Below, in pieces: positions 14,294-36,724 of a stretch of 45,647 nucleotides of DNA (its first letter is position 1; each line of letters begins with the position of its first letter). The notes under the pieces were generated by a model. It saw nothing but the letters and a program-made list of their open reading frames with translations, was not told the origin of the DNA and did not search any database. Made by a program: the position numbers and the translations under genes. Origin of the DNA: Polyangiaceae bacterium (GTDB lineage Bacteria; Myxococcota_A; Polyangia; Polyangiales; Polyangiaceae); NCBI GenBank assembly GCA_029261965.1, contig JAJDAH010000241.1, positions 1 to 45,647 of the forward strand, written 5' to 3'.

Positions 14294-15094
14294 GTGAAAC
14301 TCGCCCTTCAGTTCGGCAATGAAAGCCTGCCGGGGGCTTTTCATCTGCATGCTGACGGTGACGGCGAAGATGTGATCGGACTCGGTGGTGCCGGTGAGCT
14401 TGGCCGTGACCTTCTTGACCGTGACTTCGTTCTTGTCGTCTCCCAGATCGATGAAGAACCGTTTGAGTGCTTCTTCGACTTCGGCGACGGGCTCACCCTC
14501 CGTCAGCTTGCGCTTGGGCACGGCGCCGAGCAGCGGGTCGGCTTTGCCGATGCCGCTGTAGTCTTTGGCGACCTCTTTGCTTTCGTCGTCGGAGACGGGC
14601 TTGCCATCCTTGTCGGTGACGATGACTTTCGAGCCGTCGCGTTCGACGATGTAGGTCTTGCCAGCGATGACCGAAGGCGCTTTCTGGTCGCTGCCGCCCA
14701 TCGTCCGAACCCGGGAGGCGGAGTCGTAGGTCACTCGGAGCTTGTGGATGGCGCCTTCTTCGACGGCGAGGACCTTTTCGCTCGTCGTCTCGCTGGTTTC
14801 GTTGCCGATGACGACGTCACGGCCCTGATAGAGCGTGCGGACTTTGGTAGTCGTGCTCTTTTCGACGGTGCGTTCGGTGCCGACCTCGGGAGCGGCGCCC
14901 AGGGGCTTCTTGGCGGGCTTGGGTTTGGCGGCGGCGGGTGTTGCCGCGGCACTCGCGGCGGGCTTCGCGCTCGGCTCGGATGGGCTCGGCGCCGGGTCGT
15001 CCTTCGTTGGCGAGTTGCAACCGTAGGTGAGAACGAGCGAGAGGATGCCCAGCAGACAAACGGCGGGGCGAACGGCGGGGCGGAGCATCGGCAT
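14171..15094 (-). CDS. Lipoprotein of unknown function
   Basis: 307 aa. The signal sequence ends in LVLTYGC, giving a lipid-anchored cysteine at about residue 26. A Pro/Ala/Lys-rich linker of about 45 residues follows, then a beta-rich region with many Val/Thr/Lys alternations (VVIGNETSETTSEKVLAVEEG, VEVEGPVDVKIAGNAGV). It resembles conserved uncharacterised envelope proteins of myxobacteria; no enzyme motif is seen. Its last 123 bp overlap the end of the convergent ferritin-like frame. The C-terminal strands look like a natural protein end, so this gene is the more credible owner of the overlap. Start could also be the ATG at 15088. Confidence 0.75.
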   Translation of the reverse strand: MPMLRPAVRPAVCLLGILSLVLTYGCNSPTKDDPAPSPSEPSAKPAASAAATPAAAKPKPAKKPLGAAPEVGTERTVEKSTTTKVRTLYQGRDVVIGNETSETTSEKVLAVEEGAIHKLRVTYDSASRVRTMGGSDQKAPSVIAGKTYIVERDGSKVIVTDKDGKPVSDDESKEVAKDYSGIGKADPLLGAVPKRKLTEGEPVAEVEEALKRFFIDLGDDKNEVTVKKVTAKLTGTTESDHIFAVTVSMQMKSPRQAFIAELKGEFHSRKADNWPSNVEVEGPVDVKIAGNAGVSQGSMKIRLAIRY

Positions 15095-33464: not shown

Positions 33465-34121
33465 TCAAGCTGCCCGCGGCTTCTCTTTCCACCCCCCACG
33501 CACGCGCTCTCGTCCTTTCACCACCACGATCGGCCGCGCGCCGATCTGCCACTCGAGCTCCGGCACCGCGCCCTTCACCGCAATCTTCCTGCCGTGCACC
33601 CCCTCGAGGTGGCACCACACACACAGCGACACCAGGTTCTCCGCCCGGTCGTCGCCACCCTGCGACCGAAATACGATGTGATGCGGGGTCAAGTCCGTCC
33701 GTGTACACGTCGGGTTCCCGCACTCGAATCGATCACGCTCGTAGATTTCGCCGTATTTGACCGTCGTCTCGAGCGTCGGCCCCCACGTGTCCCAGATCGT
33801 CTGGCAGAGAAACATCAAGAAGCTCGTGCCGTCCTCGCGCCACCGCAAGTACGCAGCCTCCGTCCGCCGAAACAGCTCGTAGTTTTCTCGCGAAACCCGT
33901 AGCCGCACGGTAACTCGCCCGATCCCCCGCTCGGCGGCCTTCAACGGCACTCGAATGGGCCCCTCGAACCGCGCCCGACCCCCGGACATGCGACCCGGAT
34001 TAGCCTGCGAAGCGTCGCCGCCCTTGCCCGCCGCCGCCGCTTCCCCCTTTTGCGCCTCCAAAAAATCCAACCCCGCCCGCCCCATCGCGTCCCCAGCCCG
34101 CCAGGCCGCACCGCTCTTCAC
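33465..34121 (-). pseudogene. HNH endonuclease, C-terminal half (split gene)
   Basis: 218 codons remain in frame from a GTG at 34121. It carries the nuclease: CGNPTCTRTDLTPHHIVFRS followed by NLVSLCVWCHLEGVHG, an HNH motif with four cysteines for zinc. It is out of frame with the N-terminal half because of an 11-bp tandem duplication at 34124-34145; deleting one copy restores one continuous reading frame. The GTG overlaps the TGA of the N-terminal half (GTGA, 34118-34121), so re-initiation could still produce the nuclease domain as a separate protein. It may therefore be a functional split protein, a recent pseudogene, or an assembly error. Confidence 0.75.
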
Positions 34122-35380
34122 GCGCGCTTCCCACGCGCTTCCCACGCTTGCGCCGCGCGCACGGTCTCTTTCGACGGAGGACGAACGAATCGCACTGCCG
34201 TGTTGCGAATGATCATCTCGGCGATCTGCACTTCTTCTCTCAGGTGCTTCACCGTCCGCCTCTCGGCGCGCTCTATCCATGCGGTCACCGTGCCTGGCGC
34301 GGCCACACGCGATATCAATCTCGCCGAGGCTTGCCCGATGCGGTTCGTCACGAGCGCATCCCGCAATTGTGGCAGCATCGCCGCGCGCACCGCCAGCGCG
34401 CGCTTCGCCTTGAGCGACGTCAAGCTCACCCCGAGTCGCTCCTGCACATAGTGCTTCTGACTCGCGTAGGACAATCGCCGCCAAGCCTCGGCCCGTCGCA
34501 ACGTTTCGAACAGCATTCCCTCGGCGACGTCGCGTTCCGAAAGCTCTCGCGCCAGCCGGCGAATCCGCGCGTCCAAATCACGCGCGTTCCTCCCGCGAAT
34601 CGGCGCCACCACCGGGCGTTCGCTCTCGCGGCCACGCGAGCCATCGTGTTCCGCCACGGCAGTCCCCATCTGCCGTTCGCATTTTTTTTCGGCTTCTTCC
34701 CGAAACTCTCCGAGTTGCGTGAGCCAAGCTGTGCGCGCCGCAAAGTCCTCTTCCTCCACGTGAATTTCGCGATCACCTCCCAGCATCGAGCTGTGCCCTT
34801 CCGCCAAGAGATCGCGCACCATCTCGTCCCGCGAGATCCTGCCGTCGAGCCGCTCCAACACCTTCCCCGTGGCCTCGAAGAACCACGCCTCTTCAGTGCT
34901 CATCGTGATCGTCAATGTCCGCATTTCCAACGGCGGCTCGCCCTCAGAGCCGTTCTTGTCGCCGCTGTTCTCGTCGCCGCTGTTCTCGTCGCCGCTACGG
35001 ATCTTCTCCCGCATCTGACGAACCGTGCTCGTCCGCGCTTGCCGCAGCCAAGCCTCTTCGTCGTCCGCGCTCGCCCGCCGCGTGACCAACTCCGCCATGC
35101 TCCAGCTGATCTTCCCGTCGAGTAGCGCCTGACGCACCAACGGCAACGGCTCCAAACGCCGAGCCATCGACCGCAAATCCGCTGCCCAGCGGCCTGACTG
35201 GTCACATCGCTCCCGCGCGTACGCCTCCACCGACACGAACCCCAACTCGCCATGCCCGCCCGCCGACGCCAACGCCTCCAGCGCCTCGCCCATCTCCACT
35301 CGCCGCGCGTTGCCGCTCCGCACCAATCGGTACAGCTCGCGGTCGGCGCTCAGAATTTCCTCGATGGGAACCAGCTTCAT
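34118..35380 (-). CDS. HNH endonuclease, N-terminal half (frameshifted gene)
   Basis: 420 aa from the ATG at 35380. The N-terminus (GFVSVEAYARERCDQSGRWA, then a segment like PLVRQALLDGKISWSMAELV) is the helical region typical of large deltaproteobacterial HNH endonucleases. A GDENS repeat follows, then a basic helical region. The frame ends at TGA 34118-34120 just after a duplicated 11-bp unit; the nuclease domain lies in the next frame (33465-34121). Without the duplication the protein would be about 634 aa. Such genes are often mobile or selfish. No RuvC domain is present, so it is not IscB. Confidence 0.75.
   Translation of the reverse strand: MKLVPIEEILSADRELYRLVRSGNARRVEMGEALEALASAGGHGELGFVSVEAYARERCDQSGRWAADLRSMARRLEPLPLVRQALLDGKISWSMAELVTRRASADDEEAWLRQARTSTVRQMREKIRSGDENSGDENSGDKNGSEGEPPLEMRTLTITMSTEEAWFFEATGKVLERLDGRISRDEMVRDLLAEGHSSMLGGDREIHVEEEDFAARTAWLTQLGEFREEAEKKCERQMGTAVAEHDGSRGRESERPVVAPIRGRNARDLDARIRRLARELSERDVAEGMLFETLRRAEAWRRLSYASQKHYVQERLGVSLTSLKAKRALAVRAAMLPQLRDALVTNRIGQASARLISRVAAPGTVTAWIERAERRTVKHLREEVQIAEMIIRNTAVRFVRPPSKETVRAAQAWEARGKRA
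34124..34145. repeat. 11-bp tandem duplication that breaks the HNH gene
   Basis: Two adjacent copies of GCGCTTCCCAC (34124-34134 and 34135-34145). Eleven is not a multiple of three, so the second copy shifts the frame. Removing one copy on the coding strand gives AWEARVKSGAAW, joining both halves in one open frame. Confidence 0.9.
34952..34996 (-). repeat. 15-bp tandem repeat in the HNH gene
   Basis: Three units, two of them identical (GTTCTCGTCGCCGCT) and one with a single substitution. In frame they encode SGDEN/SGDKN repeats. Copy-number change would keep the reading frame. Confidence 0.9.
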
Positions 35381-35468
35381 GGTGTCACTCCGGCTCGCTA
35401 CGCCCGAAAGCGCTCACGAAAATGCGCACCGCGCACACACCCCGCCGAGGGCGTTCAGCTAAACCAGA

Positions 35469-35536
35469 GCGCGCTACGAACGCGCAACACCAAGCGTGCC
35501 GAAGCACGCGCAACACCAAAGCGCGCCAACGCGCGC
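35469..35536. repeat. Cluster of three small hairpins
   Basis: Hairpin 1 pairs GCGCG (35469-35473) with CGCGC (35481-35485). Hairpin 2 pairs GCGTGC (35494-35499) with GCACGC (35504-35509) around CGAA. Hairpin 3 pairs GCGCGC (35521-35526) with GCGCGC (35531-35536) around CAAC. AACACCAA-type spacers separate them with a period near 26 bp. They lie 89-156 bp upstream of the HNH gene start. Confidence 0.7.
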
Positions 35537-35952
35537 ACGAAACCTCAACCTAACTCGCACGGCGGGAGACGCAACCCCGGGTGTGACAAACAATGTCCTC
35601 CCTCTGGGCCACCCAAAATTGTTGGCCACTCGAACCTCAGCGTTTGACTGCGGCGCGAGCGCGCAAGTAGGTCACTGTCCCAGTGTTCCGGCAGCGCTCC
35701 ATCTCCAGCGTCCGCGAGGCGCTCACGAATCGATATTGCCTCGACCTCGTGGCCGCGCGGCCGGCCTGTGGTGCTCGAGCTTGGCGATTTCGTCATCGCT
35801 CGCCTCGACCGCAGATGCGCCGTCAGCTCCTTCTTCAGGACACCTCGAGCCTGAATGAACAGACTCCGGTATTGCGTTTCGTAGGACACTCGAGCTGGAG
35901 CCGCTTACTCGGCGGGTCCTAGAGCCATGTAGACATTCGCTCCCGGCGCCCG

Positions 35953-36015
35953 CCGACCTGCATGTCCCGCCGACCCGCATGTCCCGCCGACCCGCATCTC
36001 CGCCGACCCGCATGG
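35953..36015. repeat. 17-bp tandem repeat, orphan array
   Basis: Units start at 35953, 35970, 35987 and 36003; consensus CCGACCCGCATGTCCCG. The third lacks one base and the fourth is cut after 13. Unlike the other arrays in this window, no clear gene ends here. Confidence 0.9.
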
Positions 36016-36120: not shown

Positions 36121-36131
36121 AAGGAGGCGAA
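36121..36131 (+). promoter_or_regulatory. Consensus ribosome-binding site of the two-gene unit
   Basis: AAGGAGG (36121-36127) is a full anti-Shine-Dalgarno match four bases before the ATG at 36132. It is the best ribosome-binding site in the window; most other genes here have weak or no match. It decides the start at 36132 over upstream in-frame codons. Confidence 0.85.
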
Positions 36132-36539
36132 ATGTCGGATCCAGTTCAAATGTGCGGAGGCCCCCGCGCCTGTTTCGCGAACGAGGCCAATCAGTCGGGC
36201 GGCCCCGAAGCGTCGTTGCCCCGAAGCGAGACCAAAGCCAGCGAAAAGCTCCAGTGCGACGCGCCGAGCCCCGGTCACGAGGCGCTCGTCAAGCGCCACT
36301 CGAAATCAGTGGCGCCGCGGACCTCCACCCCTTCGAGCTCCAGCGGCTGCGCGGACGCCGTGGCTCAGCTCGTCGGCACCTGCGGCCCGCTGGCGATCGC
36401 CGTTGGCGCTGGCACACTCGGCGGGGGCGCCCCCGGCGTCGTCGCGGCGTTCATCGGGGGTGCCGTGTGCGGCCATGCCGCCACGAAGGTTGCTGACGAG
36501 TGTTTCACCGACGACACCTCCGGCAGGACGGCGCCATGA
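36132..36539 (+). CDS. Small Gly-rich Cys protein, bacteriocin/toxin candidate
   Basis: 135 aa from the ATG at 36132. Not a recognised family. The N-terminal about 70 residues are polar (MSDPVQMCGGPRACFANEAN to about S71) with no signal peptide. The C-terminal part is symmetrical: C73-x10-C84, a 28-residue Gly-rich hydrophobic stretch (about 86-112, IAVGAGTLGGGAPGVVAAFI), then C113-x10-C124. Two disulfides could staple two helices around a membrane-inserting hairpin. Its stop overlaps the start of a two-helix membrane protein gene (ATGA). Small size, glycine-rich hydrophobic core, strong ribosome-binding site and a coupled membrane partner all resemble bacteriocin operons. Toxicity is inference; a structural membrane protein remains possible. 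Confidence 0.7.
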   Translation: MSDPVQMCGGPRACFANEANQSGGPEASLPRSETKASEKLQCDAPSPGHEALVKRHSKSVAPRTSTPSSSSGCADAVAQLVGTCGPLAIAVGAGTLGGGAPGVVAAFIGGAVCGHAATKVADECFTDDTSGRTAP

Positions 36540-36724
36540 GCCGGGCGCAGAACAAGGCAGTTCCGTTCGCTGCCTTTGCCGGGATCGTGTTCGTCGTCCT
36601 GCTCGCCGCGGTCGGCTATCGCATGGAGTGGCTGGGCGCTTCGTGGGTTCAAGGATTCGTTTCGGGTGGGTTCGTCGTCCACCTGATCCTTCACTTTGCA
36701 CGGCGTCGTCGGCTGGCACGATAG
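36536..36724 (+). CDS. Two-helix small membrane protein, immunity-like
   Basis: 62 aa from the ATG at 36536, overlapping the previous stop by four bases. Two transmembrane segments (FAAFAGIVFVVLLAAVGY, and about FVSGGFVVHLILHF) are joined by a short loop; the C-terminus is basic (ARRRRLAR), so both termini are probably cytoplasmic. Small basic two-helix proteins coupled to a Gly-rich peptide gene commonly serve as bacteriocin immunity factors. A membrane anchor or export accessory for the upstream protein is the alternative. No other gene follows within 260 bp on this strand. Confidence 0.7.
   Translation: MSRAQNKAVPFAAFAGIVFVVLLAAVGYRMEWLGASWVQGFVSGGFVVHLILHFARRRRLAR

What the first reader, a model, noticed from the sequence alone, without database searches (positions are those of the whole stretch)
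36132..36724. Two-gene unit: CX10C...CX10C glycine hairpin protein plus coupled two-helix membrane protein
Seen: the best ribosome-binding site of the window, an ATGA overlap between the two genes, and a striking internal symmetry in the first protein (C73-x10-C84, 28 Gly-rich hydrophobic residues, C113-x10-C124). The second protein is 62 aa with two membrane segments and a basic tail. Known: bacteriocin and contact-toxin operons often pair a Gly-rich membrane-active peptide with a small membrane immunity protein. Inferred: a disulfide-stapled membrane-inserting toxin and its immunity protein, next to a damaged HNH gene and repeats as in accessory islands. The polar 70-residue N-terminus may be a leader or export domain; a GG at residues 23-24 hints at a double-glycine leader but the residues before it fit poorly.
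Basis: partly seen in the sequence, partly recalled or inferred. Interest (0 to 1): 0.62.

Follow-up and report, generated by a model that had tools for sequence, protein, structure and literature searches.

The report
Cysteine-hairpin protein with membrane partner
In a few relatives of predatory myxobacteria a small two-gene cassette travels as one unit: a protein ending in a cysteine-spaced greasy hairpin, overlapped by a gene for a small membrane protein whose sequence differs from case to case, which looks like an undescribed toxin-and-protector pair but has not been shown to be toxic.

Summary
In detail: gene 1 (36132-36539, 135 aa) has the four cysteines at the stated places, the longest Shine-Dalgarno match of 41 called genes, and a 4-base overlap with gene 2 (36536-36724, 62 aa, two membrane segments). 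No library family matches either protein.

Relatives were found only in a few genomes of the same family. Seven loci in six genomes (window included) carry the hairpin. Cysteine spacing is kept (10/27-28/9-10 in most) at 23-50% identity outside one genus. In 7 of 7 the gene 1 stop is overlapped by a gene for a small membrane protein, yet these partners fall into four sequence types without detectable kinship; elsewhere in the same DNA the arrangement follows 4 of 857 long open frames. An eighth, distant relative lacks the partner. In the pair of genomes compared, both genes are under purifying selection and change 2-6 times faster than five neighbours. In one genome the equivalent site is empty and the pair lies elsewhere, so it moves as a unit.

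Best reading (0.5): a cystine-stapled membrane-inserting effector with an immunity protein. Toxicity, export and disulfides are untested. The double-glycine leader is rejected: GG is not conserved. No dedicated delivery system accompanies the pair.

The parts
36121..36127 (+). Shine-Dalgarno sequence AAGGAGG of gene 1
   Evidence: longest anti-16S match among 41 called genes of the window; AGGAGG also precedes gene 1 in G084 and in the second G078 copy, but not in G085 or G086
36132..36539 (+). gene 1: 135-aa protein, polar N-terminal part, C-terminal cysteine hairpin; no signal peptide or lipobox visible
   Evidence: start agrees with relatives (MSDPV against MPDPI, MPSPI, MTAPI)
36132..36347 (+). 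N-terminal polar region of gene 1 (residues 1-72); holds the weakly conserved start M-x-x-P-[VI] and NQS; the matching region of the G086 relative is predicted largely unstructured
   Evidence: relatives G084-G086 have S-[IL]-D-D-[YF]-P-N-Q-S here
36348..36503 (+). cysteine hairpin of gene 1 (C73 to C124): C-x10-C-x28-C-x10-C with a Gly/Ala/Val-rich middle
   Evidence: AlphaFold2 two-helix hairpin, mean pLDDT 66
36536..36539 (+). ATGA overlap of gene 1 stop and gene 2 start
   Evidence: overlaps (ATGA, GTGA, TTGA or TGATG) in 7 of 7 loci
36536..36724 (+). gene 2: 62-aa protein with two membrane segments (about 36566-36616 and 36647-36697) and basic C-terminal tail
   Evidence: no library family above cut-off; in 183 genomes the best hit other than itself has E 0.011, the 15 others unread

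Best explanation
The pair is a mobile toxin-immunity type cassette. Gene 1 makes a protein with a floppy polar N-terminus, possibly used for export or loading, and a C-terminal hydrophobic helix-turn-helix whose two arms each carry two cysteines about 11 positions apart, i.e. on one face of a helix. In an oxidising compartment C73-C124 and C84-C113 would bridge the two arms and give a stapled hairpin that inserts into, and leaks or disrupts, the cytoplasmic membrane of a neighbouring cell. Gene 2, translated through the overlap, sits in the producer's inner membrane and blocks it. Shown here: the two-gene unit, its conserved cysteine spacing, the overlap, the membrane nature but unrelated sequences of the partners, purifying selection with fast change, and presence of the pair at different sites with one empty site. 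Inferred: disulfides, membrane insertion, toxicity, immunity, export.
For: Gene 1 relatives: seven loci in six genomes, window included. Cysteine spacing 10/27/9 in G077, G084, G085, G086 and distant G135, 10/28/10 in the window, 10/27 with the fourth missing in G078a, 10/26/15 in G078b, in spite of 20-50% identity outside one genus, G135 included. Overlapping membrane partner in 7 of 7 loci against 4 of 857 other long open frames (the loci are not fully independent). Partners form four types: A (G077, G084, G085, G086; pairwise z 13-30), B (G078a), C (window), D (G078b, 139 aa, four segments); between types z is -0.8 to 1.8. Fast change: dN 0.23 and 0.24 for the two genes between G086 and G085 against 0.04-0.10 for five neighbours, dN/dS 0.28 and 0.24. 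Empty site in G084 between the same two flanking genes, with the pair on another contig of that genome. Two-helix hairpin predicted. Type-A gene 2 seen only beside gene 1.
Against: No toxicity data. No signal sequence or lipobox; among the neighbours scanned no secretion genes, except in G077, where a HlyD-type fusion protein and two further genes that look like an ABC permease and ATPase lie about 1.2 kb away. dN/dS is well below 1, so no sign of diversifying selection over whole genes. G135 lacks a downstream membrane gene. The model is of modest confidence (pLDDT 66, three sequences) and its fold search was uninformative. In alignment the window's third and fourth cysteines do not fall in the relatives' columns. 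Partners of type A (G077, G084, G086) and type C have opposite predicted orientation (charges; rule recalled), odd if all block the same kind of hairpin in one way. Two of seven copies look damaged in gene 1 (G077, G078a). Low identity between G086 and G085 is not unique to the pair: the stretch before the upstream lipoprotein is 0.69 and one window at 14401-14700 is 0.78.
Confidence: 0.5

Rival explanations
1. A two-subunit envelope complex with a physiological, non-toxic job: gene 1 is a membrane-associated hairpin protein held or inserted by its membrane partner, gene 2.
For: Overlap and purifying selection on both genes; no dedicated delivery genes; partner a membrane protein in 7 of 7.
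Against: A fixed physiological complex should keep a homologous partner, yet partners are of four types without detectable kinship; sporadic presence, 6 of 183 genomes of the order plus distant G135; different sites and an empty site.
Confidence: 0.2
2. An intracellular toxin-antitoxin or phage-defence module in which one of the two proteins depolarises the membrane of its own cell on infection.
For: Two small genes, overlap, mobility, membrane proteins.
Against: No PADLOC model matched at E 1 or better for six proteins; no defence genes among the scanned neighbours apart from the broken HNH gene; four conserved cysteines suggest an oxidising compartment (inference).
Confidence: 0.12
3. A diffusible modified or disulfide-bonded bacteriocin precursor: polar leader (residues 1 to about 70), hairpin core, gene 2 for immunity.
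For: Leader-core layout with a more conserved core (dN/dS 0.20 core against 0.35 N-terminal part, G086-G085); nested-disulfide hairpin is the layout of glycocins (recalled); an ABC-type exporter lies near the G077 copy.
Against: No modifying enzyme among the neighbours scanned and no double-glycine site; GG not conserved.
Confidence: 0.1
4. Chance open reading frames in GC-rich DNA.
For: High GC gives long spurious ORFs; my caller did not pick gene 2 of the window on its own.
Against: dN/dS 0.24-0.28 for both genes in the G086-G085 pair; cysteine spacing, start and overlap conserved.
Confidence: 0.02

Closest known systems
CdzC/CdzD-CdzI of Caulobacter (eLife 2017, PMC5380434; passages read)
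   Different: Cdz has its own type I secretion genes, RTX-like N-termini and two toxin proteins; here one protein, no transporter gene adjoining, four spaced cysteines
SitA-SitI toxins of myxobacteria (eLife 2017, PMC5562445; passages read)
   Same: myxobacterial, polymorphic, effector gene followed by an immunity gene, accessory location
   Different: SitA is an outer-membrane lipoprotein with a lipobox and unrelated C-terminal toxin domains, in some cases with sitB; here no signal or lipobox, and the C-terminal hairpin is the conserved part
Glycocins such as sublancin (recalled; only a search listing seen)
   Same: two helices bridged by two nested disulfides (recalled)
   Different: CX6C spacing, glycosylation genes and double-glycine leader (recalled); none seen here
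Twin CX9C (CHCH) proteins, e.g. TRIAP1
   Same: helix-turn-helix with two cysteines on each arm about three turns apart (recalled); the best, not significant, PDB sequence hit was TRIAP1, E 0.16
   Different: eukaryotic, short loop, no 27-residue hydrophobic segment (recalled); no evidence of descent

Membership tests
Effector-immunity pair (general) | effector gene directly followed by and coupled to a partner gene | tested here: met
   7 of 7 loci overlap; not met in the distant G135 relative
Effector-immunity pair (general) | gene 1 product harms cells that lack gene 2 | not testable with these tools
   needs expression
Effector-immunity pair (general) | pair gained and lost as a unit | tested here: met
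   one empty site, in G084, with the pair elsewhere in that genome
SitA-SitI | lipoprotein signal sequence on the toxin | tested here: not met
   no hydrophobic N-terminus or lipobox in the window, G084, G085 or G086 (by eye on the sequences; hydropathy)
Cdz glycine-zipper bacteriocins | type I secretion genes in the cluster | tested here: not met
   in the window the only ABC genes among the neighbours scanned are a ZnuA/ABC/ABC-3 metal transporter; in G077 a HlyD-type gene and what look like ABC permease and ATPase genes start about 1.2 kb from gene 1, not tested further
Cdz glycine-zipper bacteriocins | GxxxG in the hydrophobic part | tested here: met
   GxxxG in the hairpin of the window, G084, G085 and G086, the four examined
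Double-glycine leader bacteriocin | conserved GG cleavage site with leader | tested here: not met
   GG at 23-24 absent from G084, G085 and G086
Known defence system | match to a PADLOC model | tested here: not met
   6 proteins, none at E 1 or better
Pfam, NCBIfam or PHROG family | score above cut-off | tested here: not met
   best PHROG hit E 0.0032, the window's protein only (PHROGs have no curated cut-off)

The most novel reading that the evidence does not exclude
A new class of contact or predation effector in these myxobacteria: a cystine-stapled transmembrane hairpin with no Sec signal, whose immunity slot is filled by non-homologous membrane proteins of different size and even opposite orientation, exchanged or rewritten faster than the toxin.
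Probability: 0.3. Interest if true: 0.72.

Novelty: new variant of a known kind. Interest (0 to 1): 0.5.

Why it matters
If it is a toxin and protector, these bacteria carry a weapon type that no library used here names, with a simple recognisable signature (C-x10-C-x27-C-x9-C plus an overlapping small membrane gene) by which it could be counted in other genomes. Partners of unrelated sequence for one kind of hairpin would be a compact system for asking how immunity to membrane-inserting proteins arises anew.

Tried and rejected
Double-glycine leader: rejected, GG not conserved. x10/x10 symmetry: true for the window only among the members. Pfam, NCBIfam and PHROG names: only weak hits that mostly differ from member to member, taken as noise (DUF4131 recurs below its cut-off in three type-A gene 2 proteins, E 0.004-0.13). 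PADLOC: none. The halocin C8-like hit (E 0.53) and the TRIAP1 hit (E 0.16) are not significant. Phage and plasmid collections: no match for P0001 in either, none for the G086 protein in plasmids. N-terminal motif as a tag on other proteins: pattern in 4 of 108 family genomes, three of them gene 1 itself; the fourth (G103) is another frame of what reads as a flagellar hook-associated protein (by eye).

Rows dropped; 17 hits other than the window; one accepted (G078), 13 compared and three, dropped as compositional; 15 hits; six strong, nine weak, of which one (G135) accepted on start, cysteine spacing and size, eight dropped (two that printed nothing were read); 23 hits, six strong; 17 weak read, none accepted; one, L106 in G453, has C-x10-C-x27-C near the end of a long frame without a hydrophobic middle or a fourth cysteine in place, left open; 53 listed hits; four real, plus G085 among the weak ones; of the other weak ones two (L048, L049) were read; six hits besides the query and G085; five compared, one (L114) only with another profile; none accepted; beyond the six accepted places, 12 weak hits unread; 27 weak hits unread; 15 weak hits unread. 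Structure search of the model: best E 5.2. Full-length model of the G086 protein: pLDDT 48, used only to say that the N-terminus is predicted largely unstructured.

Full report
WHAT IS THERE. The two genes exist as described. Gene 1, 36132-36539, 135 aa; gene 2, 36536-36724, 62 aa. Cysteines of gene 1 are at 8, 14, 42, 73, 84, 113 and 124, so the C-x10-C-x28-C-x10-C hairpin is exact. The AAGGAGG at 36121-36127 is the longest Shine-Dalgarno match of the 41 genes called in the window. Gene 2 has two hydrophobic segments (11-27, 38-54) with two basic residues before, one between and five after, which by the positive-inside rule (recalled) puts both ends in the cytoplasm.

NO NAMED FAMILY. Pfam, NCBIfam and PHROGs gave nothing convincing for either protein or for the relatives scanned, and PADLOC nothing for six proteins. 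Rfam (gathering scores) found no RNA and ARAGORN no tRNA in the window. Phage and plasmid records gave no match for gene 1.

RELATIVES. A search of 183 held genomes of the order with gene 1 gave one convincing relative, G078, E 2.4e-5, among 16 genomes with some hit. A profile of the two reached G084 and G077, and weakly G085; the next profile gave these at E 2.4e-30 or better and added G086, not in the profile, at 2.2e-27. In that search 15 of 183 genomes had a hit at E 0.01 or better; six are strong and one, G135 (E 3.8e-4), is accepted as distant because its start (MPDRI), size (131 aa) and cysteine spacing (10/27/9) agree. In the phylum sample, 22 of 377 had a hit and only the same six were strong. 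The G086 protein found a second copy in G078 (E 1.4e-6) that shares the middle stretch GYTGKDGST-VSRDAVNQLV, has cysteines spaced 10/26/15 and is again overlapped by a membrane gene. All six are in the window's own family of the tool's classification, which names no taxa; named records are a Polyangiaceae MAG, whose protein is identical to that of G086, and a Myxococcales groundwater MAG that is the G085 contig by length. Values given for G086 were read from that named record (L090). Two copies look damaged: in G078 (first copy) the conserved N-terminus lies in another frame than the rest, and in G077 the N-terminal part is replaced by other sequence; these may be assembly errors or real.

CONSERVED SPACING, DRIFTING SEQUENCE. 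Identity to the window protein is 23-33% over full alignments. Yet spacing between the cysteines is 10/27/9 in G077, G084, G085, G086 and G135, 10/27 with no fourth cysteine in G078a, 10/28/10 in the window and 10/26/15 in G078b. Residues 11 apart fall on one face of a helix (established geometry), so two antiparallel helices bridged twice (first to fourth, second to third) is the natural reading; this pairing is inference. AlphaFold2 on residues 65-135 with two relatives gives two helices, 5-31 and 36-65 of the fragment, mean pLDDT 66. The N-terminal part of the G086 relative is predicted largely unstructured, at low confidence. In a scan of the window and 178 loci for the four-cysteine spacing, members had 0.68-0.96 hydrophobic residues in the middle and the best other sequence 0.64.

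THE PARTNER GENE. In 7 of 7 loci the stop codon of gene 1 is overlapped by a start codon (ATGA, GTGA, TTGA or TGATG) of a gene for a protein with two or four membrane segments. In the same seven stretches of DNA such an arrangement follows 11 of 864 ends of long open frames, seven of them these; the loci are not all independent, since G085 and G086 share a site. The partners are not one family: type A (G077, G084, G085, G086) have basic residues (2 to 6) in the loop between the segments, the window's has five in its tail, G078's first has two at each end and none in the loop, and G078's second has 139 aa and four segments. Local alignment z-scores between types are -0.8 to 1.8, within type A 13 to 30. 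Type A was seen only beside gene 1: four strong hits in 106 genomes, with 27 weak hits unread. The exception to pairing is G135, where no such gene follows.

SELECTION AND MOVEMENT. Between G086 and G085, dN/dS is 0.28 for gene 1 and 0.24 for gene 2, so both are real coding genes there; with G084 it is 0.27-0.29 and 0.44-0.46. Their dN (0.23, 0.24) is 2.3 to 5.7 times that of five flanking genes (0.04-0.10) and their dS (0.82, 1.00) is above theirs (0.37-0.73). Nucleotide identity is 0.74 and 0.70 over the two genes, 0.51 in the 65-base spacer before them, and 0.82-0.90 in seven flanking genes; outside genes it falls too, to 0.69 in the window before the upstream lipoprotein. In G084, of the same genus, the two genes that flank the pair in G085/G086 lie 15 bases apart with nothing between, while the pair sits on another contig between other genes. 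So the two genes come and go together, on the evidence of one empty site. Gene neighbourhoods differ between the window, G077, the two G078 copies, G084 and the shared site of G085/G086.

HOW IT MOST LIKELY WORKS. A coupled, mobile, fast-changing pair of a small greasy protein and a membrane protein of ever-different sequence is the usual dress of effector and immunity. The conserved cysteines suggest the hairpin acts outside the cytoplasm, the GxxxG motifs suggest packing in a membrane. I therefore favour a membrane-inserting effector neutralised in the inner membrane by gene 2, at 0.5. The route out is unknown: no signal peptide, lipobox or conserved GG leader, and no transporter adjoining the pair; only in G077 does what looks like an ABC exporter start about 1.2 kb away. 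The polar, partly conserved N-terminus may be a loading signal; that is speculation.

COMPARISON. Cdz of Caulobacter works most alike, but has its own type I secretion genes. SitA of myxobacteria is alike in biology, but SitA is a lipoprotein and this is not. It is filed as neither. Papers: PMC5380434 and PMC5562445 were seen in passages only; other literature hits as listings. By title and start of abstract those five listings showed no paper on this pair; that does not prove there is none.

On re-reading I widened the identity range, added the type D comparison and the weak hits not read before, and added the G077 exporter and the other low-identity stretch.

Noticed in passing
33465-35380 (-): HNH endonuclease gene lies in two frames; an 11-base tandem repeat (34112-34147, 3.3 copies) sits where the first frame ends, so a change of repeat number may have caused the break.
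   Followed up: partly
35949-36014: About four copies of a 17-base repeat (CCCGCCGACCCGCATGT) ending 117 bases upstream of gene 1; a 26-base repeat at 35463-35534 and a 15-base repeat at 34952-34996 lie nearby.
   Followed up: no
L142 7251-8176 (G078): Second copy of the cassette in one genome, with a four-segment membrane partner of 139 aa.
   Followed up: yes
L073 9698-10222 (+) (G077): The sequence that stands in place of the N-terminus of gene 1 reads on the other strand as a Cys-rich 174-aa protein with a Gly/Ser-rich stretch; the two frames overlap.
   Followed up: partly
L090 8664-12974 (-): 1436-aa protein with a short, weak Met-zincin (DUF4953) match next to the pair in G085 and G086; all six genomes searched hold related copies.
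   Followed up: no
L106 (G453): A long frame from another family of the phylum ends with C-x10-C-x27-C but lacks the hydrophobic middle and the fourth cysteine; chance or a very distant relative.
   Followed up: no
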